Shown one piece after another: positions 3,355 through 55,647 of a stretch of 64,000 nt of DNA. The stretch is from contig CM073329.1 of the NCBI GenBank assembly GCA_037043015.1, positions 11,176,648 to 11,240,647 of the forward strand. Reading direction: 5' to 3'. The stretch is from Bryum argenteum (taxonomy: Eukaryota; Streptophyta; Bryopsida; Bryales; Bryaceae). The position numbers and the translations under genes were made by a program. Position 1 is the stretch's first letter; each line of letters opens with the position of its first letter. Under the pieces are notes generated by a model that saw nothing but the letters and a program-made list of their open reading frames with translations, searched no databases and had not been told where the DNA came from.

Positions 3355-3429
3355 CCGAGTAAGGGGAGCATGAACCTGAGAGTAATTTTTGATGACGATC
3401 CGATAGAAGTTAGCAAAGCCGAGGAAGCA

Positions 3430-31900: not shown

Positions 31901-32636
31901 AGTGCACTTTTTGAACTTGGGTTTCGTGAATGAACCAATCAATGATGAGCTTGCAACCTTTCTACAAGGTTATGTACAACCCCAACCTACCTATCACATT
32001 CTTTTCAAACCACAAAATCACTCATACGAATTGTAAGATTTGACTTTTTGAATGCATCACAAGAAGGTGACCAATTTGACATCAAAATATAAGTGAAATT
32101 TGAGTACAGTGAGAGCTACCCTGTCGGAAAAGAGCCTCTCGGGCTTCCCTGGGCATTCAAGGGTTAAACAACGATTTGGACTGTGTAGTTCTAAGGAGTG
32201 TCCAGCCTGATCTCTCATGTACCGGTAGTTTAGGTTATTTTAGATTTTTTGGTGCATTCTGTTCATGCATTGAGACAAGTTGAACATTTGAGTTCTGAAG
32301 GATGATATTGCATGAGTAGTTAATTTTTGTTCAAGGTGTTTTGTATGTAAGTACTACCAAAATCATAGGTTAAAACATTCTAGAAAGAAAAATGTCTGAA
32401 AAAGTAACAACAGATCGGTATTTCAACAATCACGCTTGCAATAGCAATGTTATAAAACCACCGATCCAAAGGTGGACAGTGCGTACCTGAGAAGAAGAGA
32501 CAGAGGAAGCTCCAAGAGAGAGTTGGACAAGAGGCGAGAAGCAGAGATAAGCCACCACACAGGAGCACGTAACGGCCAGCGCTATGAGCAGGGACCGCCA
32601 TCGCCTCCCATTCTCATGCAATCGCTTCATCGCCAT
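28933..32636 (-). CDS. Membrane-anchored PAN-domain, cyclophilin-like protein
   Basis: The product combines an N-terminal membrane anchor, a Cys-rich PAN/apple domain and a C-terminal cyclophilin-like (peptidyl-prolyl isomerase-type) domain. Six exons join in frame to about 361 residues: 32487-32636, 31571-31813, 30713-30912, 29913-29946, 29586-29723, 28933-29253. Exon 1 encodes the hydrophobic segment SLLIALAVTCSCVVAYLCF. Exon 2 has a Gly/Glu-rich linker and the PAN domain (CCDACKSNRKCNSWVYC, AAKCGTFHRQ). The cyclophilin-like part shows NGQVIRIKLLSDCSPQSV, GCRFYRAEG, GPPYAVVQGTL, GPDFFISLADHYEW and KHTVFATIVEADMHLV. FYR and the FFISLADHYEW block match active-site positions of cyclophilins. 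The exon 3 donor is the least certain: the CTACG|GTTAGA site keeps the frame, while a stronger-looking GAA|GTAAGT seven bases on would break it. The anchor suggests a Golgi or ER lumenal protein. Confidence 0.82.
30161..30595 (-). repeat. 43-bp minisatellite in intron 3 of the PAN-cyclophilin gene
   Basis: About ten nearly perfect head-to-tail copies of a 43-44 bp unit occur, each holding 'ccaagaccctac(a/g)atcc', '(t)agtgacaaaa' and 'caaacaacacc'. Copies differ by single substitutions and by the length of A and C runs. The array fills more than half of intron 3 (29947-30712). Confidence 0.9.
30940..31365 (-). repeat. ~210-bp tandem duplication in intron 2 of the PAN-cyclophilin gene
   Basis: Two consecutive copies start with 'attcca(t/a)(t/a)agccatcatca' at about 30935 and 31149. 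Both continue through 'gctcaataacggctca', 'atgcatgttaccaatttttc', 'aagtggaatcatcattttt' and 'ctataatgagta'. They are about 90% identical by eye, so the duplication is recent. Confidence 0.8.
31839..32163. mobile_element. MITE-like element with TTAA target duplication, copy B1 (in an intron)
   Basis: Imperfect terminal inverted repeats CCCTTAAACGCCCATGGG and CCCTTGAATGCCCAGGG (the right end read on the minus strand) bound a 325-bp non-coding element. TTAA sits on both sides (31835-31838, 32164-32167). The interior matches the element at 53692-54052 over most of its length (for example 'gcagcccaaaattggatcac', 'caatcaatgatgagcttgca' and 'caaggttatgtacaacccca'). It lies in intron 1 of the PAN-cyclophilin gene, so any effect would be on splicing or expression rather than on the protein. 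Confidence 0.8.
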
Positions 32637-34869
32637 CGCTAATCACTCACTCACAGATTGCTACTCTCACTCACCTTTTTCTTCACAAAAAAGCCTCCAT
32701 CGAGCTAATCCGAACTCCACCTCTGCACAATCTGCTCAATCAATCAAAGAGCTTCAAAATTATTGCAGCAAATATTAATTAGGTTGTTGCAAAAAAGCCC
32801 ACAGCATTCAGAAACCTTCCAGCAAAAACCCTCGACAAGAGTGAGAGGCTAGCTAACGAATCCCAGAGCTCGCATGAGATCTACCGCCTACCGACAAAGA
32901 GGGCTTTGACCACAACAGAGGGATCAATTGTCAGAGCGAACCCAGAAAAGGAAACGATCAAGAAAGAAACGGAACCAAGAATTCAAACCTCGATAGTTGA
33001 ATCTGGAGAGAGAGAGAGAGCGAACCTGAAGAGAAGAGAGAGAGAAGACAAAAGTGTGAACTTCGGAAGAGGTCAGTCACATAGTCATCCTTCGATCGAT
33101 ATTGCCGAATTGTGCACGAAGATTCTTCGATGCGGTGTTGACTTGTTGCGGGGAGGCTCTGACAAAGCTACTACTGTTTGCAAAAAGCGAGTAGAATATT
33201 AATATATTCAGAACGCAAAGGTTTCTTCTGTTTGCTTTCTTTCATTCTCTGTCAACTTCGTGATTGTGAACCCTCGTAATTGGAGTGCTTGATGGGAATC
33301 GATCCTGCGGCCGAAAGAATGGTGTGATGATTGGCGCATGATTTGATGCAAGATTCGATCGTCCGTAGTCGATTTCGCGATCGAAAAGCGGCAGTTTCGG
33401 GTGGACGGACTCCGTGCGGCTTCCTTCCGTTTCCTTCTCCCTTTCTATCATTGTACACTGACTCGGTAGGTTGGCTCTTTTGTTGCCGGTACAAAAGCTC
33501 TGTGGAACTTGAGTAGTGATTTGGTTATGAACATATTTTTTTGACAAAAAGGACTAAATGTAAGCTGCTGCCCTTTTTGGAGTTGAAAACCAAAAGTTTC
33601 AGAGAAGGTTTCGGAATTGGATTTTGATCGATTTTGTAAATTTTATCACGTACAACATCAAATAAATGTGGTGTAGGGAGCGCCTAGTAAAATTCTTAAA
33701 CAAACATCATATTACATTTAAGGCCTTCATCTAGGTTGCTTGAAATCGCTCCAACCCATTTTGGGTTTTAAGAACCTTTAGGAGTTGATTTATGCTCAAT
33801 ATGGTTTGACCCCTAAATGGTTTGACTCATTGATGATAAAAGGTATACATTCTCACAAAAAGAGTTATAAATGGCAACGGAGAAGCTATTGAGAACTTAA
33901 CCGTAGAATCTTGTAGTGAAGAGATTTTAAATCCTATAGGTCAAATTTTGAGTCATGGGGCCTCATGGATTGCAAGATCATGACATATTAGTACTCACAA
34001 AGTATTAACATTTTCAATTTGTAGTGGAGATGCTACCAATATAATTATTGCAATCAAAAATTACCATTATTAAGATGTTATCTTCATCTTAATAACACCT
34101 TCGAACAAAATAAATTCATGAGAAAATTTTCTTTGCACAAATAATGACCTTGCAATGGGGAAATCTGCCAAAAATATTGGAAAGGAAAAATTGTCCAAGA
34201 CTTAACCCTCTGCACTCAAATTTATGCCTTGTCTTCAATTCTCCTATAACACGCAATTAAGCAATTATGCACCCGGCTATTTAAAAGTGCACTTCGGTAC
34301 TACGATGGCTATTGCTTGCAAAAATGGAATTTTTTATTTTTAAACTTGATTTTTTCTGGAAAAAAAGGTGTTTTGCAAAGAATATTGTGTATTGTCAGAA
34401 GTGGTAATATAAAAAGACTTCTAATGGCATTGTGAACATATTTTTGGTATAAATCCATGTGAATAATACAAATATTTTTGTCCAGGGATATTTGAAATGC
34501 TTAGTATATGCTACAAATTGTGTAGATTATAGTTAATATATTTTTGGTGAGCAAAATGACGTGAGCACCAAACTGTTAATAAAAGTAGGCACCAAATTGT
34601 TCCAATGGACATTTAATAAAAATATACTCTATATTGTGCTTTGTATATATGTGGTAGAAAAGTATCTAAATACTGTGATTCTAAACGTATACCAAGTTAT
34701 GTATATAATCGATAATACAACTAAATTCAACCCATATGTCCATCGCAACAACACGTCCCGAAAATAATCCTTGCAATATTGTACTATCTAGTACGTATAT
34801 ACACTTAGAAACACCATGTGTACACAAAACACATGGACTACGTACTAATATCTAATGCGGCTTGCAACC
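32637..34869. other. Promoter side of the PAN-cyclophilin gene and AT-rich repeat tract
   Basis: A (GA)n run at 33010-33024 lies about 370 bp upstream of the PAN-cyclophilin ATG and is a plausible GAGA-type promoter element. From about 33900 to 34230 the sequence resembles 22240-22700 and 52080-52300, an old dispersed repeat. No open frame with recognisable motifs was seen. Confidence 0.4.
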
Positions 34870-37800
34870 GGTCATCGTCGATAGCTTGGGTTTGCATTGC
34901 GATATATTCTAATATGTGGGCCTTCGCAGATTGGATAATGCAAATGTTGCTTGGAACCCGCACTCCAAAGACATTGCGGTTTCTCCCCGACTATGGCGGA
35001 CATGATTTTTTCGGTTCGTCCGCCCATGAAAAAAATACATGCCTCTTTCTCTATCCAATCGTGATTCTCCCCGGATGGCTCCCACAATGAATCCAAAAGT
35101 TTGCATACCGTTGTAAAGAGGATCTCGGTCCGTCAACAACTCCCCCCCTCGTATGATTGGCCAATACCAACAAACTTTCATCTTGATTTTATTCCGCCTT
35201 TTCCGTCTTCAATCACCTTCCCTAAATAAAATGGAACACCTCGTCTACTTCTCGCACGATCAACACCGAGGGCTACAAATTGTCCGAAAGGATATCGGAT
35301 TGAGGATCAAGGTGGGGAAAAGGATCGTCAAGACTTTCCGATACCGCTCTTTTTCTTGGTTCCATCAAAGATGTGATTGCGAGCCGTTCTTTTGTGCCTC
35401 TACGACCGCTTGGTTAGGTGGCCTCTCTCTTCGATGACCAAAGTATCCTCTAGCCTCGAATTTGGAAGCATCGCCACTATTTGGTCCACAATAGTAATCT
35501 CGTGGTTTGATTCATTTCGATCGTCAATAACATCTATTGATGCATCTATAGTAGGTGATGTCTCTAATACCTACGAAGGCCAAAGTGTGAAGAACTATGC
35601 TCGTTGCTACGATCTTTGCTTGGAAATTCGGCTAGGTATAGTTTCAAATGTTCGGCCTCTCTTTTCGCTTCACCATTTTTTTCCGGATGTTGGAATCTTT
35701 GAATGCACCTTTCTTTGTATGCAATAAAGTCATCCAATGCCTTCAACTCCCTTTCTTTCATCACCGCAAACACCTTTGCAAACGATGGTCGTTCTTCTTT
35801 ATTTGGTAGCGATCGCAACATCTTTGTCCCTAACTCGGTCCCCATTTATCCTTGCTATAATGTTTGTGTTGTCTTTCGAACCTTACCGACCCCCTCTCGA
35901 TTGTCCATATAGAATCGCATGTGGTGCGGAAAGGTTATGCCAACCAAAAAAGTCCCCACCCGTCGATAAGTGAGGGGTTATGAAGGACTTCTAGTCCCAC
36001 ACATTTTCTAAGAAGTCCGCGCGCTAACAAACGCCTCTGTTATGGATGTACCTTGTTCTATTAGACTAAGCATTTCTTTCAATGAGTCGATGTCCGACCT
36101 CTTCAACACATTAGATATACAACTAAAGCGTTGGTCGATATCTTCGTGTGTGTATGGCCCACTATAAGGAAAGAGAGCTCCACCTCTTGAAAAAAAACCC
36201 AATCCCACCAATGAAACACATAGAAAGAAACATGTAAATGTTTTTATTCTCTCGTGTGCGATTATCCGCTTGATACGTAATGTTGGAGGCAAAAAGCGTT
36301 TTCTCCTCTTCACATCTCCTATCACGCGCAACAATGCGCCACCACCTGGTTGCTATCGTATTTAATGGTGCGCGCCGAACCACACATCGCGAGATAAACC
36401 AATCCCATGTACGAGGGCTCCACACAAATGGGTCTTCACAAACCGATCTTCGATGTTCTTCACGGTTTGACGATTCGGTACCATGGTAGTGTTTTGATCC
36501 ACGCCATCAACGATGATGCACATGTACAACTTCGGGCTGATATAGCACGACCTCTTAAATATCCAATAATCCCTCCGTTCCTTCATCGAATACGCAGATG
36601 CATCATAAACAACTCTTTTATTTTGATCCGAAAGATCCGCATTCGTGGTTCCCTCCACGGCACATTTATACTCCCAAAGAAGGTGATAACACTTTGAAAA
36701 CCTCGAGAATGGGGTACGCGGACATGAGGATATCGATGCTTTCCACATCCTCCGGAACGAGCTAATTGAAATGGTTTCTCCGTTACAAACTCTCTTCACC
36801 TCCTCGTTCACGTAATTGAATATATCGGACTTCCGAGTATTCGTAGGCGAGGAGAATAAGAGGCACCACTTCGTTGTCATCCTTACGAAAAATTGAACGA
36901 TGAGGTTGAGGACAACCAAACTTCGTCCCACAAATGATTTAAATGAGGCCTCTGCCGTGACATTCTAGTGCTCTCCGGCGGGTTTGAAAGGTCATTATTC
37001 GAAGTGAATCGCCGCCACTCTTCCATATATTAAACACTCCTTCTTGATTGTTTAAACCGTCTTTGTGAATATCCAACGCCAGAAAGATAACAGCATTGCA
37101 AACTTGTTTGCCATCTAACTTTGTGACAAATTTATCTCGTTGGAAACGTTCCGTCCGTGTATAAAAAAAAAAAAGATTTGTCTCATCCAAGATCTTGGTG
37201 CATAAGTAGAAGCCCACACATTATAACGCATGTCCAATAGATACCGTTCTTGAATGTCTCTCAAACAATTTTGTTTGCATCCTCCTCGCCCTATTGCCCT
37301 TTGACGCTTAGAAGAGATACCTTTGTAGATATACCTTCTCCGGAAGATGTCTCCTGGAATCTCTCGCTTCTTCTATTTTGATAGAATATGGACGTCGGGC
37401 CGCCTCGACATTTAATAAGCCCATCTACATGGGGCAAATCTCGGATGTTGGAAGAAGACTTTGAGAGAATGGAGAGTTCTCATCTACGGGGTTTGAAGCT
37501 ATACTCATCGGCCGAGACCTATCGGTGGATCCGGGTGTGTTGAAGTTGTCATGGAAATCAAATTCTTGCGCCAACCTCCGTGACAGGTGGCGTTTGAGAC
37601 CCATTCAATACGTCCTCGCCATTTTTGAATGGTGGGTTCCACGCTTATCGCGACGTAGATAAGACTTGTGCCAACGGATGATCAATCCAACACACATTCC
37701 AAGACGCTCCCACAATCTCTCCGGTCAACGCAATGCATCGTCTACCCTAGTGATGCGTCTTCGCCACCTCGGACGGGAATAACTTCGATCCATGCAATTG

Positions 37801-37960
37801 CGCGCCCGATTTAAATGTATACTCCCTAGTTGCCAAGCCGACAACTTCTCTTCTTTCTCGATAACAATTCAAATGTCCTTCCCAATTGAGATGAAATAGC
37901 CGAGTAATACCATCTCCAGTCCACCTTGCACGATTTGCTCAGATTAATCGCGCTCTCCCA
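34870..37960 (-). pseudogene. Broken DUF7869-type transposon-associated gene
   Basis: Several minus-strand frames carry consecutive pieces of one protein family (DUF7869, linked to mobile elements in plants and algae), which I recognise from conserved phrases. At 36362-36931 the frame shows KLYMCIIVDGVDQNTTMVPN, TVKNIEDRFVKTHLCG, ALVHGIGLSRDVWFGAHH. At 36008-36425, in two frames, come NRTRENKNIYMF, then THEDIDQRFSCISNVLKR and IEQGTSITEAF. At 35564-35845 comes ERPSFAKVFAVMKERELKAL. The frame changes at least three times, so it cannot be translated as read. Sequence on both sides, from 34909 and to about 37950, has the same CG-rich texture and is included as the likely extent. Confidence 0.65.
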
Positions 37961-39374
37961 TCGAACCGTTTGGATTAATGACATCGCGTCAGACGTATTG
38001 GGTGTTTTGATGTACTAAAGGGATTTGGAAATTGGAGTCATCCATTGTCGTTGTTGAACTAATAGGAACCTATACATTGCAAACATGTGAAAATATGTGT
38101 GTAAGCAATAGAAAATATCATTCATTCAAACGAACATATATTCTAGGACATAAATTTTGCTTCCAAACATGATTGTTAATGTTGGTTACTAAGTCAGTAA
38201 TGATATTGTATATAATTGTTAAGATTGTTTAAAGTTGTTAAATTACTTAGGATTATCTTGTGTACTTTATTTATATATAAATTAACGGTTTATCTACCTC
38301 TACAAACCTGTGTTGGATAAAATAATACAATGCTAAGTTTTGATTACATGGAAATAACAATAATCATGTTTGATACCTTGTCCAAGACTATGTTACACCT
38401 TAGGAATTGGATTGTTTGCGTTTCATAATACATTGCTAAAAATCGTTGATTGAAATAAAAAAGACAATGACAACATGAAATGGCGTCAATTTACTTTGTA
38501 CCTATGGCAATTTCTATTATAAATCCTACATCATGCTTTGAGCGTCATAAAACCACAAAAGATGGTGGTATTGTTTAGGATAAAGGAATAATTATTGCAA
38601 TGACAATGATTATAGAAAGTTACAACTTACTTATAGGTTCAATTAAATTTGCAAGAAAAATAATATTTGCAATATTCATTGTATGATCTATTATCATAGC
38701 GATGGATAGAATTATCATGTGTTCTTGTATGAATGCAATATATTATTGTTTGGAAAATATGGTAATTTTAAACTTTAACTTTAACTTCTACTACATTATA
38801 AAATTGAAAGTTGAATAAAACTTGCAATCAATGATTCAATTGCACTCAAGTAGGAACAAAGTTTTATAGAAGAACAAAAATATTAAATCAAATTGGAACT
38901 AAATTATTCCCACCTCAATGAGTTAGCTTTATAGGGCTTAGAACCAAGTGGTGTTCACACCACATGTCCATTCTTAGACATGCTCTTCAATAGATGTAAA
39001 AATATAGAGCGCGGAAACATACAACAAATAAACCGGAATTTAGCAATGCAAACACTTGTGCGTTAGAGATTATTCAACTAGTAACTTACATTTTGAGTCA
39101 TCTTGGAATTTGAAAGAAAAAATAAAAAAATAAATTTAATTTTCAGTCAATTTTAAGAATTAAAAAATGATTCACAACATACAACAAAATTTCAAGAATT
39201 TAGTGAAACAATAACTTGTAGATTACATTATTTAGCCTTCTACTAAAATCATTCAATTCAATTTTTCATAATTATAGAAAGTTTTTAAAAAACTTAACAT
39301 ACAACAAAATTGCTATAATACAAAGAATAAAAATACCTTTGATTAGACATCCTCAACTAAAAATGACATTATTT

Positions 39375-39378
<4 letters not shown>
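37961..39378. other. AT-rich intergenic tract, nothing recognised
   Basis: The composition changes sharply to AT-rich after about 37990. I see no open frame above 60 codons, no terminal repeats and no RNA gene. Confidence 0.5.
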
Positions 39379-39416
<38 letters not shown>

Positions 39417-39511
39417 AAAAGAGAGGAGGTGGTAGAGGTGTTAGCACCGCAAGTGAGGGGGGGTGGGTGTGCCCGGCGAACACCTCTACCACCTCCTCCT
39501 TTTTTTTTTTT
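39379..39511. repeat. Poly(A), perfect 19-bp inverted repeat and poly(T): foldback
   Basis: A run of 36 A residues (39379-39414) is followed by arm 39423-39441, a 38-nt G-rich loop, arm 39480-39498 (perfect complement of the first) and a T run (39501-39511). The A and T runs extend the pairing, so the whole segment can fold into one long hairpin. It lies about 80 bp before the LTR retrotransposon. Confidence 0.8.
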
Positions 39512-39593
39512 CCATCCGACCTCCCCGCTTCGATCTTGGCGCACACTTGTTTCTTTCTTCCTCCTCCGCCTGCTCGTGTTTTGAAGGTCGTTG

Positions 39594-40058
39594 TGTCGGG
39601 ACACGGCAATGAGATTATAAGAATATGTGGAAACTAACAAGAATCGACGGGAGAGCTTGAATTAACAAGAATACACGAACAACAACAAGAGAGATGAGCT
39701 AGAGCTCCAAGAGATGCGTTGTTGAGACCGGGTTGCCCTCACCGACTCCTATATATACTAGTTAAGAAGAAGGTTCAAGTAACCTTCCTCAACCTAGGAC
39801 CTTCTAAGATCTTCCAAGAACTTCCAAGACCTTCCGAAGCTTCCGGGGCCTTCCCGGAAACTTCAAGGACCTTCCAAAACTTCCAGAGACTTCGGGAACT
39901 TCCGAAGAAGTTCCGGAAGCTTCTAACCTTCTAGAACCTTCCTAAGTTGTCTACCTAGTACGTGGCCGTGACAGGGGAATCTTCAAGGAATCTTTTAGGG
40001 AATCTTCAGAGAATATTTTAGAAGAACCTTCTAGAAACTTCTTGTGTATGTCCCGACA
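39594..40058 (-). repeat. LTR of element 2 (3' LTR in element orientation)
   Basis: The LTR begins TGTCGGGACA and ends TGTCCCGACA. It carries 'ctcctatatatac' (TATA-like) and many 'cttccaag(a/g)' type repeats. It is about 50 bp shorter than its partner at 45233-45749. The differences cluster at CAG and CTG trinucleotides. Confidence 0.9.
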
Positions 40059-43000
40059 TCACCTCCCCTTCTAGCTTCGAGGTCTCCAGGAAATTAACGT
40101 TGTTGTTAGTCAATACCAACGCAGGAAAATGAAAATCGCCGCATTGACATCCGCAATAAACTCCAATTGTTGTTCACGGGCAAGTGGTTCATCGGTCCTT
40201 GAAGCCAACGATAGTGGCCGACGCTTCCACCACCGGCGTGAAGCGCAACGTATGCCCGTTATGGAATTGTCCCGCAAACACACCTTCCAGCGGTCATTGA
40301 AAGCGGGCTCGACCTCAAATACAATCACCGGCGATCGATTGTTCGGAATCCTCCGTCGGCGTCGTGGTGAGGCGGTTCTTCATCTCAGGTCGCCGCCGAG
40401 AGTTGGTTGGTTGAGATGGCATAACCGGTATGTTATCTATCTCTTGACTATCCATGACTAAAAACCAAACTATGACTATAGAGAAATTCTATCTAGAACA
40501 AAATATGTAAATCAAATGTGAATCGAGGTTGTGTTCACTCTCCCCTTTTATTCTCCCGAGTGGGCAAGCGTCGGAGAAAGTTATCGTCGGAAAAGGCTTA
40601 GGTTCACGAGGATATCGTTGATGAAATTCCATGCCCTTTTCCGGCGCATTTCAAGATTTTCGGCATGTTTTAGGGGTTCTTTCGTTGATGTCGTATCCGC
40701 TCCAATCACAAAATACTCCAAGTTTTTCTCAAGCCTGCGTAGTGAATCCAAAGACCTTATCCACCTCATATTCCTCGTGGTTCTCAATTTCAATACTAGG
40801 TGGCGGCCCTCGCACTCTTAGGAAAAGTCGACTCTCGATAAGGTTCCAATAAAGACACGTAGAAGACCGGATGGATGTACCTTCATAGTAGCTTCAGTAA
40901 CTCCAACCGATACGCCACCTGGATTGATTTGTTTACGGATGGCAAATGGTCCCAATCTTCGATAGTCCAACTTATCACACGGCCGCTTGGTCTTGATATT
41001 CCGTCAAGCGAGCCCATACTTTATCTCCGATCTTGAAAGTAGGTCTCATTCGAAATTTATCTGCGGGACGCCTTGTACAACTCTTGGGCGGTTTGCAATT
41101 GAAGTCTCGGCGTTCTTGAAGTTCCGATAGGCGCCGCAATGAAAATCTCTTATTTCTTTGGGTTGTTATTGGCATCTGAATTCCATAAATCGAGCGGGTG
41201 GTATCCGTAGTTAGCGAAGAATGGTGTTTGTTGGGGCCGACGCAATGAATAGTGTTGTTGTGGCGAACTCGGCAAGCGGTAGATACTCGATCCAATCGTC
41301 TGGCGATAGTTGATGGTGCAGCGTAGATCTCGCTTCCAAATACTGATTCACCCGTTCCGTCGTCCGTCGGTTTGAGGATGAAATGCGAAGAAAACGATAT
41401 CCACCTTCAATATCTCAAATAGAGATTTTAACTTGGAGACGAACCGGGTTCCGCGATCCGACACAATATCATCTCGGCAAGCCGTGATAACGATATACAT
41501 TATCGAAAAAAGTCTTCTTTGTATCTTGGTTTCGACGATGTCTTCTTGCAAGCGAACAAAATGCGCCATCTTCGTCACCGATCTACCACAACAAAGATCT
41601 TTGTCAAACGAGTTTGAAGGCGGCAGAGTCCGTAATGAAATCCATGGAAATCAAGACCATGGTCGATGCGGGATAAGCGAATGGCCGCAAAAAGTCCATG
41701 CAGGGCGATGCCGAGGGTTCTTCGACTTGAACAAATATCACAAGAGAGAACAAACTCCTTCACATCCTTCCACATTTGGGCCACCGAGAAGTCTCGCGAA
41801 ATAAGCTCCAATGTCTTGTTGTATCCAAAATGTCCTGCATTTGGAAAGTCGTGGCGTGATTGGAGGACTCGAAGTCGTGTTCGTCCCTTAGGAATATACA
41901 TCGCTTCTTCAAAGTACAAAAGATCTCCTCCACTCAACTTGTCATTATCAAGACGCTTTCGATCTCGAGAAGCTACTGAGAATCTTCAATTGTCGTGAAG
42001 ACGATTCGGTTAAAGAAGTCCGTATCGATTGGCGTGTGATGAGCGCAAATTCTAAAATCTTTCGGTTTTTAAGAATGTGGTGCATTGTTGATGAAAGCGC
42101 CGCTTCTCAAACCTTTTAGGCGCCGGATACGATCTCCCGATAAGGCATCGGATAGTCCTTGTTGTTTCCAGGCCGATAGGTAATAACAAAGTCAAATCGT
42201 GACAACGACATATTCCACGAAAGCAGCGTCGATTCAAGACTCGGCCCCGACATAAAGTACTCCAAATTCTTGTGATCCGTGTATACGGTCGGCTGGATGT
42301 CTGTGCCTTCGAGAAAGTGTCACGCTCTTGGAAGGAATCTACTATGGCAAGAAGTTCCTTATCGTGGATTCATAATTGATTTTTCAGAGAAAACTTTCGA
42401 GAATAGAACGCCACTAGATGAAGCTTCCCGTCCACGTCCATCAGTGAAAAGACGGCTCCCAAAGAAAATCAAGCGTCGGTCTCAAATAGAAGAAGCGCTG
42501 TAAAGTCGGGATGTACCAAGATTGGAGGTGTGATAAATGCCATCTTGAGGTCTTGGAATGCTTTCTTGCTTGAGGTCCCCATTCGAGCTTGTCCTTATAA
42601 GTCAACCGAGTGAGTGGAGCGGCGACTCGAGAATAATTCTTGATGAAGATTCGATAGAAGTTAGCAAATCCAAGAAAACATTAGACGTCTCTAAACTGTC
42701 TCTGGAACCTCCAATGATACAATTGCTTCCACCTTCTTAGGGTCCATCTTCAAGCCGTCTGTAGTTGCAATGAACCCTAAAAACTCCATCTCGGTTTGGT
42801 GGAATAGGCACTTCTCCAACTTGGCGTAGAGTCGCCGTTCGTAGTTTTCTCGAGGACCAAACGAGCGTGGTTCCGTCTCTTCTTCGTTTTTGGAAAATAT
42901 CGGGATGTCATCCAGGATAGATGACAACAAAGTCGTCGAGTGCTTCCCGAAAGATGTCATTCATCATGTGTTGGAAAACAACGGAAAGCGTTGGTAAGGC

Positions 43001-45232
43001 GCCAAAAGCGCATTTACATTATATTCAAAATGGCCATACCTTTATTTTAATTTGTCTTCCACTCGTCTCTCCTTCCTCGATCCGCACGAGGTTGTAAGCT
43101 CCTCGGATCAATTTTTGTAAAGATCTTTCACGCCCGAGCTGCTCAAGAGACAGTAAATCGAGGGTAGCGGGTAACGATTTTCTTAGTTACCTTGTTGAGG
43201 CCTCGATAGTCCACGCACATTCGTAAGGAGCCATCCTTCTTCTTTACAAACAAAGATCGGTGCCCCGGTGGCGACTTTGAATGACGAATGAAGTTCTTCG
43301 CTAGATTCTCGTTAATGTCTTTTCTTGACTCCGCTAACTCCGTTTGAGAGATTGTAGATTGGGCCAAAAGGCGGTTGTCTCCTTCTTGCAGGTCTACGGC
43401 GCGTCGTATGGCCGATCTTTCCGTAGTATGTCGCGTTCTTCTTCAAACACGTCCTCAATATCTTGTATATTTCTGGTATCTTTGCCGTCGAACTCTTCTC
43501 CGTGCTAGTTGAAATTGCATAGATACAAAGAGTCTGCTTCTTTGGATGATCGTCTTAACGCCCTTCTTTCCAATAAACAATGGTTTTCCTATCTTGGGAT
43601 GTCTACTAGGTTGGCTCTTGGAATGTTCTTTGGAAAAAGTCATTTTCCGCAACTTCCAATCTATGGTAGGGTTATGTTGTTCTAACCAAGAGAGACCTAG
43701 GATGACGAGGGGTTTGACGGGGTTAATGACATTAAAAACAGCGTAACTACTATGGTCCTTAAACGCCACCTCTATAGAGTGCGATTCAGGTGACATTTCT
43801 TGGGAGACAATAAAGGTCGTCCATCTATCACCTCTACATAAACAGGTTTGGACACTGTACTAGAGCGAATCTTGTGGCGCTTACAGAAATTCTTCATTTA
43901 AAAAACAAGTAGATGCTCCCGAATCTAATAGAGCTAAAGTTTTGTGTTTTTGAGGACCAAGAGACGAGGAATTGTAAAACAACAGGCGGGTTGGACGAGA
44001 GAAAGAGGAACACGATTGTTGTTGTGGCATTGAATCGTCAAGCCGCATGGTTCCTCATCAGAATGCAAGATCGTCGTTTTCGGGATCACCGCACTCCTAG
44101 TCTTAACAATGCGCCGGTTCTCGCTTCTTGGGGCAATTTCAACCTTGTGGCCTTCTTCTCCATGAGACAAACAGAGTCCTTCTTCCATACGCCGTTTCTT
44201 CTCTTCGGGTAAGAGCTCGCGACACGTGCCGCGTCGATTTGCGTGGCTTCTGCTCCGAATGAGAACTCAAATTGTTTGCCAACATACTCGTGGTGTAGCG
44301 ACTCGTTTGGTATTTTGTATTTGGTCTTGACGATATTTGGAATAAACGGTTGTCGCACTTTATAGCTTGGCTAATGGCCGTTGAGCGTTTGCGGATCGGG
44401 AAGAGATAAAAGTAGGTCCTTCACATCATCCTCAAACCCCAATAAAACCGACTCACCAATGCTTTTTTCCCATGATTGATGTCACTGCTTGATTGTCTAA
44501 AATCCGATCGTCGTAGATCGACGCAGAGCGCATTCTTGTCGTAGTGATCGGATCTTTGTTGTAGCCCATCGGACCTTGTCGTATTCGCCAAACGCTTCGC
44601 AAATGCCTCCAAGAACGTCTCAAAGTTGCTCGAGAATTGGCGTCGTTTTCGAACAAGGGGCAAACCACGACAAAGCTTGCCCGTAGCGCGAGTTCCAACA
44701 AGTCTAACACGCGCCTCCTCCGTCGGATATCGTTGTTTTGTAAAATCGTTATCAACTTGATTTGGTTGACAAAACCTCGAAACTTGAAACGCGTTCCGTC
44801 GAAACATCGGGAAGACTAACTCTAGGCTCCTTCCGTTGTTGAATCATTGGGTTTTGTTGAACCAAAGGTGTAGTCGCCTCCTCCGGTGTAGTTGCTTGAG
44901 ACTGGTGAATCGCGGATGATGTTATCCCGGATGCTCCATTATTGTGAAGTCTTGCCATGGCTCCTTCTATCTCCGCTTGTCATGTGATAATGCAGCAAGA
45001 GCACTCGTGATGGCGTCAATTTGGATTCCAAATTTTCAGCCATACTAACGTCTTGATCTTTGACTAAATCTACGAAAGAAAAGAAAAAAATTTGACAAGA
45101 GAACAATATTGGTTTAGAGGAGGGTAATCCGCAACCTCTAAAACACTAAAGACACCTTCGAGAAGAGGGGTAATCCACTCTCTAACAAGAAGGACTAACT
45201 CTCATATTTGTGAGAAGGCGGTCTCGACAAAT

Positions 45233-45749
45233 CGTCGAGACACGGAAATGCAGATGATAAGAATATGTGGAAACTAACAAGAACTGACAGGAGCTTGAAT
45301 TAACAAGAAGAATACACGAACAACAACAAGAGAGATGAGCTAGAGCTCCAAGAGATGCGTTGTCGAGACTGAGGTTGCCCTCAGCCTCGACTCTTATATA
45401 TACTAGTTAAGAAGAAGGTTCTCCAGAACCTTCCTCAACCTAGGACCTTCTAAGACCTTCCAAGAACTTCCAAGACCTTCCAGAAGCTTCCAGGGCCTTC
45501 CGGAAACTTCAAGGACCTTCCAAAAACTTCCAGAGACTTCCAAAAACTTCCAGAGACTTCCAAAAACTTCCAGAGACTTCCAGAAACTTCCAGAAGTTTC
45601 CGGAAGCTTCTAGAACCTTCTAGAACCTTCCTAAGTTGTCTACCTAGTACGTGGCCGTGACACAGGGAATCTTCAAGGAATCTTTTAGGGAATCTTCAGA
45701 GAATATTTTAGAAGAACCTTCTAGAAACTTCTTGTGTATGTCCGTGACA
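45233..45749 (-). repeat. LTR of element 2 (5' LTR in element orientation)
   Basis: The partner LTR starts near 'tcgtcgagacacgg' and ends TGTCCGTGACA. It keeps a regular series of 'cttccaga(g/a)acttcc' repeats, about four copies at 45525-45600, only partly present in the other LTR. The TATA-like 'tatatatac' lies near 45395. The sequence just inside this LTR does not show the usual tRNA-iMet primer-binding site, so the primer is unknown. Confidence 0.85.
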
Positions 45750-47499
45750 CGTTGTTGCCGTTTCTTCCTCCTCCGCTCTTGCTCGTGTTTCTGCAGGTTG
45801 CTATTGTCTTTTCTTCCTCCTCCGCTCTTGCTCGTGTTTCTCAAAAACGCTGCTAGGACGATCTGTAGAGCACTAGGAGAGTTTCGTGACTTGTTGCAAC
45901 CAAAAATCTTTTTGCCGATTCTCCTTATCGCTTCTTCTTTGTTGTCTTAGAATCATTCGCTTGCTGCTCAAGTACCGAATCGCTTCTTTGCTATTGTACA
46001 GGATCGCCGCCCTCTTTGTTGCTATCGAATCGATGCTTGCTACTTACTGGCGATCTTGTTGCTATTCCTCATTGCTATCATTTGGTATTGTTGCTGCATT
46101 GTTGCGGCGTGCATTTTGGGTTCTTGTTCGCTCTTGTCATGCAGTGCGCTACTATTCAAGTTGTCCACTTTGTACTCGATATGTTAAAATCTTCGTCTTC
46201 CTCCCTTCATCCTCTTTGTGGTCTTTGTTGCAGCCATGCAGCCGCCACCAAAGCCACCAAAATCCTAATTTTAAAACCTTAAACCCTAAAAAAATTTAAA
46301 AATCTTTTAAAAATAAAAATAATAAAAAAATTAGCGAGAGATTGCAGGGGGTGTGTGCGCGCACAAGACACCCTTGAAACAATCAACCAAGTGAACTCCA
46401 ATAAACATCCCATTTACTATATTAAAGCCATTTCAAACGTCGATCCCGCCTATGAGGGATACCCGCCCATATTGATACCCGTCATACATTATAGTTACTT
46501 GCTTAAGAACAAGAAAAATGAAAACATTTAGCAACACATGATAGTAAAAATATTAATGTAGATATTGTAGAACTAACATCTTTCACATCTGATCGTTTGA
46601 GACTAAAAATATTACCTTCTTTTTACGATTCTAAATTTCTAAAATTGTCTTCACTCGTAAAAAGAGCATTTAACTTGATCAAACGTGTTCACACATTTTG
46701 GTCAAAGGAAAGAAAAAAATACTATTTTCTACATAAAACCTATAGATCTTCATTTAATTTTTTTTTTTTAGCGAAAATTTTATGTGATAAATAAATTCTT
46801 ATCAATCATTTTGGATTTTCATTCTAAAGCATGTTGAGTTCACAAAAGATTAAAATGTGGCATAAAATTTTGTCAAATAATTTCAATCTCGATCCTTTGT
46901 ATATTTGTTTTGAATATGCTACACACCTTTTCCATGTCTAGAAATTGGTTTTAAGGTAACCAACATGATCATGCCAATCATGATTTTAAAGAAGTTAGAC
47001 CTTGTATAGTGAATTTTTTTAAGCCAAGTGAAATTAAAATGTCTAGACCACTAAATACAATTAAGCAAATGAATTATTCTTATCATTTCAAATGCTATAA
47101 TATTTTAATCCTTCCGATGCATAGTAGCCTAAAAAAATTTGGTGGCTTTATATCAATGTTTATTTTAAGATTCTAGGATTAGAAGTCTTAAATTTCACTC
47201 TAAAACTAGATTTTGAAGCCACTTTTTGATAGTGAATGATTTGAAGTGTTTCTTGAAGAATAATGGCCTAGGCTTTTCGGGGCTAAAGAGTCGTCAATCA
47301 TAAAACAACTTCCACATGGAGTCATATTAGAATCAAAACAAACAAAATGGCCTATGTTTGTCTATATTCACATGAACCATGTGGTCGGATGGTGAATTTT
47401 GGTATAAGTTATCAATATTTTATTGAATAGAAATCAAAACAATTGTCAAATAGACTCTAAATTACACCATATTAACCATTATGATATTGTGTTCCAATG
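45750..47499. other. Target-site tandem repeat, then AT-rich tract
   Basis: From 45755 to 45850 a ~53-bp unit ('tttcttcctcctccgctctt', then 'gctcgtgtttct') repeats twice; a third, altered copy lies on the other side of element 2 at 39550-39590. The retrotransposon therefore inserted into this tandem repeat. The plus-strand frames at 45886-46299 are Ser/Leu/Cys-rich translations of pyrimidine-rich repeats and do not look real. From 46340 on the sequence is AT-rich with no coding signal. Confidence 0.55.
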
Positions 47500-50400
47500 A
47501 TGATCGAGGTTGCCATGCGCCGCAACGTCGGAACCAAGCGCAAAATCGACAAGATGGGAGAAGCAGCGGATGGTGGATTGTAGAAGAGGACCCCTCAAAG
47601 CCTTATTTGTGGATGACGCACCAACCTTTTAAAATAAGGGACCGTCGTCGGCGTTAGGCAAGCGTTTTGGCGAGATTCAAGCAATTACTACCCGCCCGTA
47701 AATGCCCGACATGATATATGTGATGTGTGTCACGATCTTTGATGAAGCAATGCAAAAGACTTCTCCGTCGAGAGGCTTAACTTCTTCTTGCATCCATTCC
47801 GGAATCTTTGCTTGCAAGTTAAGGTCCGTGAAATTCTCAATACCTTGCAGAAATTTTTGGTGAATATCGCTCTCTGCGACGCGTCTGTGAGGCGGGAGCA
47901 TATGTCACATTGTCTAGGGTTATCACGGGAGGATGTGGCGCGCGCAATGGTTCTTATGGATGCCCATATTAAGACGAAGCATTACTAGAGGCGGATCCAA
48001 CACATGCAACATCACATCGCGAGTCCACCATTTGAAACAAGAAGAGACGGATCCAATTCACCGTAGTTATGTTATTGGAAGTGAGTTGGATTCTGGCCAC
48101 TTGCCAGATTACTGCAATCTGTGCCCGTCCAGCATATCGCGACCTCTCGAGCCGCTTTGTAGGAAGTGTTCTCTATGTGGAAGAGGACGTCCTTCAAAGC
48201 GGCACGACGTGAGAGAAGCGACATAGCATCTCCCAGTTGGTGGACGATCGTCGAATGTGGCTACAAGTGGTGCGAGGTCAAGCGGACGACGGATCGAGGG
48301 CGCGTGGTAGGGGTAGTGGGTCTACAACCATGAGGTTTTCATTTCAGCGTGGAGCATCAACATGTACCGAGTTCTTCACTGAATGTATCGGCGGTGGAGG
48401 ACGAGTTTCAAAAATATCGGACCGGGGACGAAGAGGATTGAGTCGGAACCGAGGATGGCGTTGGAGGCCTCAACGTCAAGTAAGTTCCTAGCACCGATAC
48501 CTCTCGGGCGAAAGTGCGAAAGGATCGCTATGGGGGACATTGTATTCGAGGTGAAGATCGACAAGATTATCCAAGTGGAGAGTCCTTTTACAAACCATCG
48601 GGTCTCTCTGCAAAGAGAGTTAGAGAGGTTTATGACTTTATGAGACATCAGGAGAGAACAAGACTTGTGTGAAGCAAGTTGGTTCTTCGTCCGATCAATA
48701 CATTGTGGATGTCACTCACGGCGATGGTGTGGTTCGGCGAGAAGAGGTGTCATTCCCCCTCGAAAGAAAGCACAACGAGAGTTCCAACGCATATTTGATC
48801 ACACGGATTAGCGTCTATTCACGGTACAACGCACTCTCGGTTGTGTTGGATTGAGAGAGAGGATCATTTGGGAGCCAGGTGGATGGACAACACATAGTTG
48901 CGGCCTGCAATTTTGCGAAGGAAGAGGTTGCCCAACACAAACTCTCGCATCGCCGAGTTTGTTAACATCTTTGAAATGCGGGAGGCAACATTTGTCGTAT
49001 ACGATGATCTGCATTGTACCTAGCGAAGTCCGCGTGGTCAACAAGAAGGAATGGAATAGGACAAAATATTCCACCATGGATGAGGACTTGAGAAAGCTAC
49101 GAGATTTGGGAGTTGTATGGGAAGCGCGATAGCTTGGTTCGTGCAGGCGATGACGCGGGCTAAAGCTACGGTGTGTGCGGCTAATGCGGTGAGAAGAACC
49201 TTGTTGAGGGCAACAAAGGTATAACAATCAAGAGGTTTGAAAGCGGATCGTGACTTGACCATTCATGCGTGGAATCGCCGGCGCGAGTGTTCTGAAGCTA
49301 TCCTTCAGTGTGTGCAAGGACTACGAAGATGGCTATCTCTTTTATAGCAAGAAGAGGAGAAGAAGTGGAAGGCGTTTGGAGACAAGAACAACCTAGATCC
49401 CTCTTGTGGATGTACGGGAGCGTCGGAGCGAATGACCATGTGGGTGGTTGAGGCCGCTCAATGTGGTTCCGATACCGCTTATCTACGGCTAGTCAAGTCT
49501 TGTGCGGCTAAGCCGGTGGGGAGGACAACCGCAGACCTCGACAATCAAATTACTTTCACGCCATCGAGGATGCGTCCAGGGATCCCGTCCGTCTTATGCA
49601 GTGCGATTGGACCGGATCGTGAGACAAGAAGCGGTCGCTAATATCACTCGTTGGTTAATGGTGTCCAACAAAGAGTCTTTCACCTAATTCCATGGAAGAG
49701 TTCTTCCACATATCTGTCACGGAATTATTTTAGGGCAAGGAGCAAATTGATGCATTTGGCAAGGACTTGGCAAAGACACAAAAGCGCGCATGGGCTAAAC
49801 CTACACGAGAGAAGGTGTCAAGTTGGCGGGACATAAGTGAACTTATTCCCACCTCCATCAACGTTCACTATCGGGACATTGCAACAAGAACACATGGAGA
49901 AGTGGAAGCATCGGCGAGATGAAGGTGGTGCCGCTACCGTCGCATGGAAGTGGGTATTACAAGTTCGAAGGCCAACTCGCACCCGAGACACCGGATCATC
50001 TTATGGTTCGAGCTTAGGAAGGATTATTTCATCACGATGTCGTGATTGACACAATCGTTCTTGTGGATTGTTGATTGTCGGCGTGGTGGGGAAAGCGTGG
50101 AGACTGTCGCAGGAAGAAGAAGCGATTCACCAAAGTTATTGCACAATCGTCGGCGTGGATGACGGGCGTTGAACGATGGACAAAAAGTATTCTCTTTATT
50201 ACCGCGGCCGTGTTTTAATGCCGAGTTGTTCGCGAAGCTCAAACTTCCCGTGGTGGCACTCAACGACATGGATGTTGGGCATTTGGCGCAAACTCGGTTG
50301 ATCGGTATGCCCTCAACTTTCACGGGGTGGTCGATTCTGACAAGCGGTGGAACCATTTGGAGGTGTTGTTGTTCATATGCAACACCTGTTGATACTTCCC

Positions 50401-51290
50401 CAACAGGAATTATGTTTTCGGGGGACCGTCCACTACCACTTGTATTTCGCGATCAATGGGTGAGACACATCAACCGTCGGAGGGTGATAGACTCGGCGAT
50501 CGCCATCCAAGCTCTCTAGATTTGGTGGATGCGTATTTGCCAATTGGTTGGGGTTTGTTGCGTATAACATTACAACGGCCATTCCGACAATCCTTCATGG
50601 AGGTTTCCGTGGATCGGAGATCATTGTCATTGACGATAGCCTGGAAAGGCTAAACTTCTTGTATACAAAGTTGTTTGACAACTTCCAAGGACAATTTGGA
50701 TCCCGAGATGACAGTGCAACAAGGAGCACGGCGTTGGCATTTCCGAGGGTGAAGATCCGATGAACATAGGTTGAGAGGAAGGCGGTAGTGACGAGGACGA
50801 GCTTGGAGATGAAGCGGATACTTCTATTCCAAAGACCATACACATTGGCAAATGTCACGGCGGGTAGCGTGAGTATGGCGCGAGATGTCTCGCCTCGCGC
50901 GATCATAACTCATGTGACGACGGCTTCGTTCGTGCAGTGGAACCTAATGGCTTTGAGGAAGGATCGGAGAGACCAGGCAGGTGGTTCTAGATACTCCAAT
51001 TCAAACGAGACCAATGGTGCCATCCATTCCACAATCTACGGAATCGGCGGACACCATAGCTTTCAACGAGCGCTGCACCAATGATGACATTTAGAGACGG
51101 CTTCTACTATAACACCGATGGCATAAGGTACACTCGCCCGCGCGGTGGCCGAGCGATTCACGCACGTACGAGAGTGCGTCCATGATCTCAAATTCTATTG
51201 ATCCCCCAGTGTCGTTGGCGGCAGTGGATCGTATGGTACATGAGGCCTATGAAGGCAGTACCGGTAGGACAATGGAGGAGGATGATTAGA
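47500..51290 (+). pseudogene. Coding-like but frame-broken tract, probably a mobile element; not identified
   Basis: This 3.8-kb CG-containing tract sits between AT-rich flanks with abrupt edges. Many short frames follow one another, for example 48383-48643, 49432-49641 (MTMWVVEAAQCGSDTAYLRL), 50169-50519 and 50548-50763 (SEIIVIDDSLERLNFLYTKL). A final stop lies near 51289 after an acidic stretch ending GRTMEEDD. No frame stays open over 140 codons and I recognised no conserved domain. It resembles the DUF7869-type tract and element 2 in texture: few CAG/CTG and many frame changes. A degraded transposase gene is likeliest; a decayed host gene is possible. Confidence 0.35.
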
Positions 51291-53691
51291 GCATCAGAGA
51301 TTTATAAGTAGCAAGTCAATATGATGTTTAGGTGGCATGTTAGGTTTGATTGATATGTTTGAGTAAAGTATGAGATGTTTGGTTATAGTATTATGCATGT
51401 TATATTATAGTATTTACTATCGATTCTAAAAGTACGTTTATGAATTTTATGTATGGATTTTCATATAATATAGAGCGAGATGCTACATATTTTCTCGTTG
51501 AATAGCACATGTTGGCCTTTTATCTCTTATAAAGTATGTCTATTGTATAAATGCCAAAAATAGTATATAAATGTCATATAGCAGCAATGTACAACGTAGA
51601 AGTTCATAATCAAAATTGCATTGAATCTAAAAAGAAACACTATAGGAAGTTCAAGGACAAAATTGAATCTTTGAAATTCTTTAAATTTCAATTTTTGCAC
51701 TCCAAGACGTGACGTTGTCCTTCATATTGATCCATTGGGATTTGTATTCCAAAAATTTATATGGTACACAAAATAATAAAATAGATGTTGGCAATATTTG
51801 AATATAATAATTTGGTAGTATTTACAAAGCAATAAAACATGATTTAGCAACAAATTTGTTATTAAAAAAATACTATTTCTCGTTAGTTTAAGTTTAGTGC
51901 CTCCACATTTAAATTATTTTTTTTGTGTGGAATTTTTGTTGTTTTTTTTTCATTTTGGAGGAAAATGTTGTTGTTTTGACATGCCATTGAGTGCACTTGG
52001 CAAAGTGCATAATTGCTTAATTGCGTGTTCTATGATGTTGTCAATGTTTCTACTACTAAAAATAGACTCTAATAGGAATATATCTCAAAATGAAGTCAAC
52101 ATCCAACGATGGATGAAGGAGATATAAATCCTCAAAAATAGTCCATATATTCATTTATTTCACTGGATAAACATCATTGCAATTGCAAGACCAGAAGTAT
52201 TTCAATCAAAAATCTTCTAACTAGGAAGTTTTTAGCCTTCAATTTAAAATCATGACCATGTAAAAAGTTTCCAAAAAAATATCTTTGGTTTCCCATATTT
52301 GCCTCACAATGTTAAAACATGCTCCATGTTTGAAAACTCAAAAACAAGAGCTCCCTTCACTATAATGCACGTCATTTGATTATAATTCATTGTACGGATT
52401 TGCAATTTTTATTACGCAAAGTAAACTCAATTTTGAGACCCAATTCAAACAATTTCGTCCAACAAAGACTCCGAATGAAGTTATGGTTCTTCAAAGTTGT
52501 TGTAGTTATCCAAAATGTCGATTTTTGACATTCAATGCGATAAAGGGTTAGAGAGCTTTAATTTAACAAGGGGGCAAGGTTTTCTTAGTGTTAGAATACT
52601 TACTATCTTGAGAAATTTACATTGTTCCTTGCACAATATTGATTCCCTCTCTCGATTTTTTCCATGCACAATGTGATTTGAGCCAATCATATCAATTTCC
52701 AACTATTAATAATAGAAAGTACATTTTATTGATTTTCAAAGTTGTCATCTCTCTTTAATTTATCCTAGAACAATATTTATTATTTTAGGAAATTTAACCG
52801 TATTTATCTAATCTACAAATTAAGTTCTTCATATTGTTTTTGGAGTTAAAAAAATACAAAGTTTATAATACATCCGAGTTTTTTGTCAAACCATCAAGAC
52901 TTTAGATATTAACTCAAGGACTTGTACCGTTTCAATCCAAGTCCATGAAAATATTAAGAATTTTAGTTGTCTACAACACTTGACCATTTACCCAACCAAT
53001 GAACCCTTTGTCCACTTGCATCACCTAAAAAATCATCTTGTGTATTAATTGCTTGATTGGCTAGGCATCTCTCCTACAAATGTAAACAAAAAAATTCATG
53101 AGGGTGTTAACACATTTTTGAGTTGATTGTGAATTTTGAAAAGTTTCTACAACTAATATTTAGATGTTTTTAATTCTTTTTCTTTATGTAGAGTTAAACT
53201 TTGCGAGTTGAGTTCCATATGCAATTTATTAACTTCAATGACTTTGTAAATAATTTGTTAAAACTCTTCAAACATAGACATGACATGTGTCTTTTTTTTT
53301 AGAGGCAATTAAGAGCCCAAGTTATAGACCACTTAGATATCAATATTGGTTAAAAAAAACCTTGACCAAATCATGATTATAATCTCCGTATTTTTCATGA
53401 AAGGTTGGGTTTTTTGTGTACCTTTGCTTATTACAAGCCACAAAAATGATGTTTTATAATCCTCAAATTTGTCTATGATGAATCAATGAAAGGTATGTAA
53501 TGCCATTGTGCAATGCATTTTCAAAAGAGGTTCTATATATGACTTTGTATGAAGTTATATTGCTTGCTCGATTTCAACTGAAATTCTTTGAGCCAAAAAT
53601 GACCATCATACCATTTTCCTTACACCATAAACGACCATGGTGTTTTGGAAACTCCAAACCCCAAGATTGCGATTTTATACCACCTTCTTAA
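51291..53691. other. AT-rich intergenic tract with dispersed repeat remnants
   Basis: There is no open frame of note. 52080-52300 resembles 22240-22830 and 33900-34230 (phrases such as 'catcattgca', 'cagaagt.tt' and 'cttctaactaggaa'), marking another copy of the old dispersed repeat. Confidence 0.45.
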
Positions 53692-54052
53692 CCCTTAAAC
53701 GTCTAGCTATACGGATTGGGGCAGCCCAAAATTGGATCACAACATCTTTTGGACTTGGGCATCATGAATAGTGCACTTTTTGAACTTGGGCATCATGAAT
53801 GATCCAATCAATGATGAGCTTGCAACCTCCTACAAGGTTATGTACAACCCCAACCTACCTACCACAATCCTTTCAAAGCACAAACCACTCATACAAATTG
53901 TGGTTTGAATTCTAAAATTTCACTTTTTGAATGCATCACAAGAAGGTGACCAGTTTGGCATTAAAATATGAGTGAAAAGTTGAGTACATTGAGAGCTACA
54001 GAGGAGATTCTGTTGGAAACGGCCCCCTCGGGGCCGCTAAGACGTTTAAGGG
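53692..54052. mobile_element. MITE-like element with TTAA target duplication, copy B2
   Basis: The terminal inverted repeats are CCCTTAAACGTCTAGC and CCCTTAAACGTCTTAGC (right end on the minus strand), flanked by TTAA at 53688-53691 and 54053-54056. The 361-bp interior is non-coding and is the same family as 31839-32163. A short internal duplication ('tttgaacttgggcatcatgaat', preceded by 'ttttggacttgggcatcatgaat') explains part of the length difference. The presence of two copies of one family with clean TTAA boundaries makes the ends secure. Confidence 0.85.
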
Positions 54053-54056
54053 TTAA

Positions 54057-55419: not shown

Positions 55420-55620
55420 AAATACTGGGATCTCCCCAATTTTGAGGATGTGGGTTTTGGGGACGTGGGTTTTGGGGACGTGGGTTTTGCGGACGTGGCT
55501 TGGAGCAAGGAAGCATGTAGTGAGACCGGAACTACCATTCAGCTGTGGTCTTTTCCGAAGGGTCCCAGTTTTCTATTGCTTTTTGTCGGAGCACAAAATT
55601 AGGGCATATTGGCGCCTCTT
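55420..55620 (+). repeat. Block with three 15-bp repeats, related to 60500-60790
   Basis: At 55450-55494 a 15-bp unit (GTGGGTTTTGGGGAC) occurs three times, the third with one change. In one frame it reads GFGDV repeats. The surrounding 200 bp, through 'ggagcaagga', 'agctgtggtcttttccgaag' and 'gggtcccagttttctattgc', is homologous to 60500-60790, upstream of NDX. It lies just before the PORR start codon and may be leader, promoter, or a duplicated exon fragment. Confidence 0.6.
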
Positions 55621-55647
55621 CTCTTTTTCATTTCCTCTGCACAAGCC

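What the first reader, a model, noticed from the sequence alone, without database searches (positions are those of the whole stretch)
39594..45749. LTR pair of one retrotransposon differs almost only at CAG/CTG sites
Aligned by eye, the two LTRs are near-identical except where the 45.2-kb LTR has CAG or CTG. Examples (45-kb LTR versus 39-kb LTR): 'atgcagatg' to 'atgagatt'; 'aactgacaggagc' to 'aatcgacgggag'; 'gactgaggtt' to 'gaccgggtt'; 'ctcagcctcgac' to 'ctcaccgac'; 'ttccagaagcttccaggg' to 'ttccgaagcttccgggg'. About eight of nine CWG sites in the stretch changed. Deamination would give TAG/CAA or TTG/CTA, but what is seen is base loss and CG-type replacement. CWG is the main CHG-methylation context in plants. 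Base-calling error of long reads at methylated CHG sites in unpolished repeats explains this best; a targeted mutational process is the exciting alternative.
Basis: partly seen in the sequence, partly recalled or inferred. Interest (0 to 1): 0.78.

Follow-up and report, generated by a model that had tools for sequence, protein, structure and literature searches.

The report
CAG/CTG miscalled in methylated plant retrotransposons
The two ends of one plant jumping gene look different mainly where they should read CAG or CTG; the pattern recurs in other copies, and is best explained by a sequencing-machine reading error at methylated DNA, not by a new mutation process.

Summary
In exact alignment, 13 of 15 CAG/CTG (CWG) sites of the 45-kb LTR are altered or missing in the 39-kb LTR; with aligned sites only, 12 of 14 CWG against 7 of 395 bases away from CWG (Fisher p 1e-16). 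It reaches far beyond the pair: CWG is at 0.34 of expectation over 25 kb of the window, but at 1.00 in the two Pfam-supported genes (147 observed, 147 expected). Other genomic copies show it too. Among 165 altered CWG sites in 54 LTRs, 129 gained a CG and 12 are deamination-type. CWG and CG counts trade off across copies (r -0.93). One LTR (L036) has 5 of 13 CWG altered and no other substitution or gap. The same kind of change hits conserved rRNA positions. Best explanation: nanopore-type miscalling of 5-methylcytosine in the plant CHG context, by a model that expects 5mC before G, unevenly polished. Methylation, platform and species are inferred; no reads were available. Not a biological feature, but a caution for transposon annotation.

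The parts
39594..40058 (-). LTR downstream of the coding region (element lies on the minus strand); CWG-depleted copy with 3 CWG
   Evidence: Sequence; repeat families D1-D6; exact alignment
45232..45749 (-). LTR upstream of the coding region; 15 CWG; its outer start (about 45232-45236) is blurred
39589..39593 (.). target-site duplication CGTTG, left copy
45750..45754 (.). target-site duplication CGTTG, right copy
40059..40070 (-). polypurine-tract-like AAGGGGAGGTGA beside the left LTR
   Evidence: read by eye; label by recall of LTR-element anatomy
42694..43400 (-). broken reverse transcriptase region, matches spread over two frames with stops
   Evidence: tblastn with the window's other RT ORF, E 3e-33 and 4e-30; that ORF hits Pfam RVT_1
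42292..42585 (-). broken RNase H region (best match)
   Evidence: tblastn E 5e-26
41578..41985 (-). piece with integrase zinc-binding domain (PF17921); order RT-RNaseH-integrase
   Evidence: Pfam E 2e-15; the other 9 of 10 pieces given had no Pfam hit
28001..32000 (.). CWG-depleted block
   Evidence: 1-kb CWG observed/expected 0.2-0.5
34001..55000 (.). CWG-depleted block that contains the element
   Evidence: 1-kb CWG observed/expected 0.0-0.7; both depleted blocks together 199 observed against 593 expected; the element alone 64 against 157

Best explanation
The assembly, not the plant, differs at CWG. The element is an ordinary Ty3/gypsy-type LTR retrotransposon. Its CAG/CTG sites are probably 5-methylated in the living plant (CHG methylation). 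A nanopore base-caller whose training data hold 5mC mainly before G reads mCAG and mCTG as a methylated CpG, so the consensus shows CGG, CG, CCG, TCG or GCG in place of CWG. Polishing repaired some stretches (the 45-kb LTR, many near-identical copies) and not others (the 39-kb LTR, most of 34-55 kb). Shown: CWG specificity, CWG-to-CG exchange, regional pattern, same changes in rRNA copies. Inferred: that the sites are methylated, that the reads are nanopore, the training bias, and the role of polishing.
For: 1) Specificity: LTR pair 12 of 14 aligned CWG altered against 7 of 395 off-CWG bases. Against each of ten other genomic copies, 63-84% of CWG are altered in the window's internal region; pooled CAG 79%, CTG 78%, next trinucleotide TGC 48%, which can overlap CTG. 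2) Spectrum: 129 of 165 altered CWG in 54 LTRs gain CG, 12 deamination-type, 24 other; triplets away from CWG change in 487 of 17820 cases, 13 gaining CG. 3) Exchange: CWG count against CG count r -0.93, slope -0.78 over 55 LTRs; r -0.91, slope -0.81 over 11 internal regions, sum 368 +/- 9. 4) Not a 5mC mutation clock: in 25 LTRs picked for 11 or fewer CWG, 173 of 325 CWG changed but 16 of 273 CG, 8 of them to TG/CA. 5) Not age: L036 has 5 of 13 CWG altered with 0 of 416 substitutions and no gap run off CWG; L041 8 of 13 with 0 of 401 substitutions but 5 gap runs; one site shows many states, e.g. CCAGA to CCGA, CCGGA, CCGTA. 6) Same changes at positions conserved in Rfam rRNA models: SSU CUGAGA to UCGAGA and GCUCAG to GCUCGG in L059; SSU UCUGUGAUG to UCGUGAUG and CCUGCCC to CCCGCCC in L061, where the second rDNA copy L060 keeps the CTG at both places. 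7) The two Pfam-supported genes have 147 CWG, 147 expected. 8) Precedent: default ONT models made about 70% of consensus errors in the Dcm 5mC motif CCAGG/CCTGG, attributed to training data lacking that methylation; custom training nearly removed them (PMC6591954, passages).
Against: No reads, signal, methylation data or platform could be checked. The window's internal region also differs from ten copies by 5.3-6.3% substitutions off CWG columns, against 0.8-4.4% among those ten, so CWG is not the whole of its divergence. In the internal region the CG share is lower: 265 CG-gaining, 75 deamination-type, 252 other of 592 lost. In 19 dispersed 5S copies against a twentieth, 30 of 95 CWG are altered and the commonest class is deamination (14 deamination, 7 CG, 9 other; hand count), so a real CWG decay also exists in this genome. 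CCAGG, the published Dcm motif, is not the worst-hit context here. The rRNA copies may be pseudogenes or organelle inserts, and several of their CWG are intact. The LSU change CCCGCUGA to CCCGCCGA is in both L060 and L061, so it may be a true variant. Two ORFs without Pfam hit have 0.75-0.78 of expected CWG.
Confidence: 0.9

Rival explanations
1. A targeted mutational process in the plant converts methylated CWG to CpG in transposons (for example an error-prone repair of methylated CHG).
For: CWG specificity and recurrence in many copies; strongest in certain blocks.
Against: Needs many CWG changed while CG sites and other LTR bases stay nearly fixed; many different products at the same site; hits conserved rRNA positions; I know of no enzyme that does this (recall).
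Confidence: 0.03
2. Ordinary deamination of CHG-methylated cytosine (CAG to TAG/CAA, CTG to TTG/CTA) made the differences.
For: 14 of 30 altered CWG in the dispersed 5S copies are of this type (hand count); 75 of 592 in the internal region.
Against: Only 12 of 165 altered LTR sites; CG sites hardly decayed.
Confidence: 0.02
3. The two LTRs belong to different subfamilies (recombinant element or gene conversion), so the differences are inherited.
For: Length differences in the tandem array between LTR copies.
Against: Target-site duplication matches; altered CWG states recur with different products among 55 LTRs; LTR pairs of other elements are discordant too, e.g. L005/L044 with 14 and 4 CWG. 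No tree was built.
Confidence: 0.03
4. Consensus errors of another kind (low coverage, homopolymers, misassembly of collapsed repeats) without methylation.
For: Extra off-CWG divergence in this copy.
Against: Does not predict CWG specificity or exchange to CG.
Confidence: 0.02

Closest known systems
Dcm-motif (C5mCWGG) consensus errors of ONT base-callers in Enterobacteriaceae (PMC6591954, passages read)
   Same: Errors concentrated in a symmetric 5mC CWG motif when the model's training data lack that methylation; nearly gone after training on suitable native DNA
   Different: Here all CWG contexts are hit, not only CCWGG, in a plant nuclear assembly; the products (CpG) were tabulated here, whereas the passages I saw do not give products
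Plant-specific base-calling bias (PMC9749173, passages read)
   Same: Names plant methylation as a likely cause of lower accuracy of generic ONT models
   Different: The term CHG occurs 0 times in its main text; the passages seen give no CWG-to-CG signature
Ty3/gypsy LTR retrotransposons (name and anatomy by recall)
   Same: LTRs, 5-bp target-site duplication, RT-RNaseH-integrase order
   Different: Nothing novel seen; frames broken in this copy as written

Membership tests
Methylation-motif base-calling error | Errors concentrated in a 5mC sequence motif | tested here: met
   CAG/CTG 78-79% altered, next trinucleotide 48%; LTR 12/14 against 7/395
Methylation-motif base-calling error | Products are not those of deamination | tested here: met
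   12 of 165 deamination-type in LTRs; in the internal region 75 of 592
Methylation-motif base-calling error | Sequence expected to lack CHG methylation (genes) is spared | tested here: met
   Two Pfam-supported genes: 147 CWG against 147 expected; four further ORFs without Pfam hit 0.75-1.09
Methylation-motif base-calling error | The sites carry 5mC | not testable with these tools
   no methylation data
Methylation-motif base-calling error | Vanishes in short reads or amplified DNA | not testable with these tools
   no reads held
5mC deamination | CAG to TAG/CAA, CTG to TTG/CTA dominate | tested here: not met
   12 of 165 in LTRs; met as commonest class only in the 5S copies, 14 of 30
5mC deamination | CG sites decay at least as fast as CWG | tested here: not met
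   16 of 273 CG against 173 of 325 CWG changed in 25 LTRs picked for low CWG
Ty3/gypsy LTR retrotransposon | Paired LTRs with short target-site duplication | tested here: met
Ty3/gypsy LTR retrotransposon | RT-RNaseH-integrase order | tested here: met
Ty3/gypsy LTR retrotransposon | tRNA primer-binding site | not tested
   the upstream LTR border is blurred

The most novel reading that the evidence does not exclude
A real, CWG-directed process in this plant rewrites methylated CAG/CTG in transposons into CpG-containing sequence, turning CHG sites into CG sites.
Probability: 0.03. Interest if true: 0.92.

Novelty: not a real feature. Interest (0 to 1): 0.25.

Why it matters
If right, transposons and probably other methylated sequence in this assembly are written wrongly at one motif. 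That can break reading frames, inflate LTR ages, lower CAG/CTG counts and raise CpG counts, and could be mistaken for transposon decay or for a mutational process. The CWG deficit can be computed from an assembly alone, so it may serve as a quick screen for this fault, and perhaps as a rough map of CHG methylation. In six answered literature searches on the topic, one open-access library and capped listings, I saw no title or abstract start that reports the CWG-to-CG signature; of these papers I read passages of two.

Tried and rejected
Deamination, subfamily difference and generic consensus error were weighed and set aside (see rivals). A base-caller tolerant of CCWGG (trained on Dcm-methylated E. 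coli) was considered; CCAGG is partly spared (17 of 34 kept between copies, depleted-to-undepleted ratio 0.38) but not more than GCAGG (29 of 44 kept) or ACAGG (ratio 0.45), so I do not claim it. Species: the moss Hypnum curvifolium was guessed from genome size; the table in PMC13120521 (section read) gives 262 Mb, N50 20.7 Mb and 10x Genomics data; here the four largest contigs seen already hold 138.0 of 258.8 Mb, an N50 of at least 28.7 Mb, so it does not match. Size searches found no fitting paper. Species and platform stay unknown. A 5S pattern search hit one unrelated place. A random survey was cut to six 2-kb stretches (CWG 0.49-0.86 of expectation). The psbA (PF00124) and LSU (RF02543) searches did not complete.

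Selection to bear in mind: the LTR copies are best matches to the CWG-rich LTR (27 of 39 non-window rows) and to the CWG-poor LTR (29 of 39 non-window rows, 3 of them already in the first set), so the spread of CWG counts is partly made by the choice of query; first-look candidates were 484 and 368. Reference copy L008 was chosen because it is CWG-rich. The first CWG site of the LTR was left out of the spectrum because it is too near the end. The 'undepleted' blocks (917 CWG, 925 expected) were chosen after seeing the profile, so the test on genes is the one. 5S: 20 of 46 matches fetched, spread over the score range.

Full report
What was checked. The window is C9:11176648-11240647 of an unnamed 258.8-Mb, 25-contig assembly. 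It is taken as a plant from a gene with the plant organelle RNA recognition domain (PORR) at 55609-56682; a G-patch/GCFC gene lies at 24596-27148. The finding names one LTR retrotransposon. It is there: LTRs at 39594-40058 and about 45232-45749, target-site duplication CGTTG on both sides, and, on the minus strand, RT, RNase H and integrase pieces in the Ty3/gypsy order. No ORF of 150 aa or more lies between the LTRs as written.

The LTR pair. Exact alignment gives 440 identical of 523 columns; much of the rest is a shortened tandem array. Of 15 CWG in the 45-kb LTR 2 are kept in the other. With aligned sites only, 12 of 14 CWG are altered against 7 of 395 bases off CWG, Fisher p 1e-16. Two blocks of 79 and 49 nt are identical.

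Wider pattern. CWG is depleted over 28-32 and 34-55 kb: 199 observed, 593 expected. Blocks that I chose afterwards as undepleted have 917 observed, 925 expected, which by itself is circular; the two Pfam-supported genes, a fairer control, have 147 observed and 147 expected, while four ORFs without Pfam hit run from 0.75 to 1.09 and the RT/RNase H frames of another element at 2836-4335 have 0.52. Ten stretches around copies of the element and the two beside the window have 0.52-0.94 of expectation, six random 2-kb stretches 0.49-0.86.

Other copies. I compared 55 LTRs: two of the window and 53 others. CWG counts run from 3 to 16. Against a real CWG-rich copy (L008), depleted copies have many CWG altered and few other substitutions: L036 5 of 13 with 0 of 416 and no gap run off CWG; L033 10 of 12 with 1 of 414 and 2 gap runs; L041 8 of 13 with 0 of 401 and 5 gap runs; L049 11 of 13 with 2 of 412 and 5 gap runs. 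LTR pairs of one element are sometimes discordant (L005/L044: 14 and 4 CWG; L054/L057: 11 and 6) and sometimes alike (L011/L021: 15 and 13; L035/L036: 11 and 10). Of 165 altered sites 129 gained CG, 12 are deamination-type, 24 other, and 47 involve an indel; the commonest are CCAGG to CCGGG, CCAGA to CCGA or CCGGA, ACTGA to ATCGA or ACCGA, ACAGG to ACGGG. CWG and CG counts trade nearly one for one (r -0.93, slope -0.78; internal region r -0.91, slope -0.81).

Internal region. Against each of ten other copies, 63-84% of their CWG are altered in the window's copy. Columns near a CWG of any copy are variable in 56% of cases, other columns in 18.5%. Here the picture is less clean: the window's copy differs by 5.3-6.3% substitutions also away from such columns, against 0.8-4.4% among the other ten, and of 592 lost CWG 265 gain CG, 75 are deamination-type and 252 other. 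Sites damaged in every copy, other errors and true divergence cannot be told apart here.

Conserved RNA as a yardstick. L059 holds a bacterial-type SSU rRNA (mitochondrial by recall, probably a nuclear insert), L060 and L061 nuclear rDNA. Where the Rfam consensus is conserved, L059 has CUGAGA as UCGAGA and GCUCAG as GCUCGG, and L061 has UCUGUGAUG as UCGUGAUG and CCUGCCC as CCCGCCC; L060 keeps the CTG at both of the latter places. The LSU change CCCGCUGA to CCCGCCGA is in both rDNA copies and may be a true variant. Other CWG in the same genes are intact, and these copies may be non-functional, so this is support, not proof. In 19 dispersed 5S copies compared with L082, 30 of 95 CWG are altered against 68 of 1785 other bases, and the commonest class is deamination: 14, against 7 CG-gaining and 9 other (hand count; 20 of 46 matches fetched). 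The contrast with the LTRs (129 CG to 12 deamination against 7 to 14; Fisher p 1e-8) suggests that natural decay of CWG in this genome looks like deamination, while the LTR pattern is of another kind.

Explanation. A 5mC-driven mutation clock should hit CG as well, but in 25 LTRs picked for low CWG 16 of 273 CG changed against 173 of 325 CWG. Making CG out of CAG in different ways at the same site, in nearly identical copies, and in rRNA copies, is what a base-caller would do that takes 5mC as a sign of CpG. Published work reports the same class of fault for the bacterial Dcm motif, C5mCWGG: about 70% of consensus errors of then-current ONT base-callers with default models lay there, attributed to training data without that methylation (PMC6591954, passages); another paper names plant methylation as a likely problem (PMC9749173, passages). 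Methylation, platform, training bias and uneven polishing are inference.

Verdict.

Noticed in passing
G000 contigs C1-C11, e.g. L081-L100: 46 dispersed 5S rRNA matches over the gathering score (a lower bound) instead of one array; from recall this resembles Cassandra-type TRIM elements that carry 5S sequence. Four of the 20 fetched are identical over 119 bases.
   Followed up: partly
L059 (C4:23308 region): Bacterial-type SSU rRNA followed by a tRNA, probably a mitochondrial insert in nuclear DNA near a contig end, with CWG changes.
   Followed up: partly
L060, L061: Nuclear rDNA copies that differ from each other by odd insertions; L061 LSU reads GGCAGGAGACC where many LSU genes have GGCGAGAGACC (recall), a change in the opposite direction, CG to CAG. 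Unexplained.
   Followed up: no
window 52001-54000: AT-rich stretch (GC 0.32) with 5 CWG against 39 expected, no listed ORF of 150 aa.
   Followed up: no
window 2836-4335, minus strand: A different element with an open RT frame of 301 aa and an RNase H frame of 172 aa, CWG at 0.52 of expectation.
   Followed up: partly
window 39379-39511: Long A run and, near 39500, a facing T run with a short inverted repeat between them (read by eye), just left of the element.
   Followed up: no
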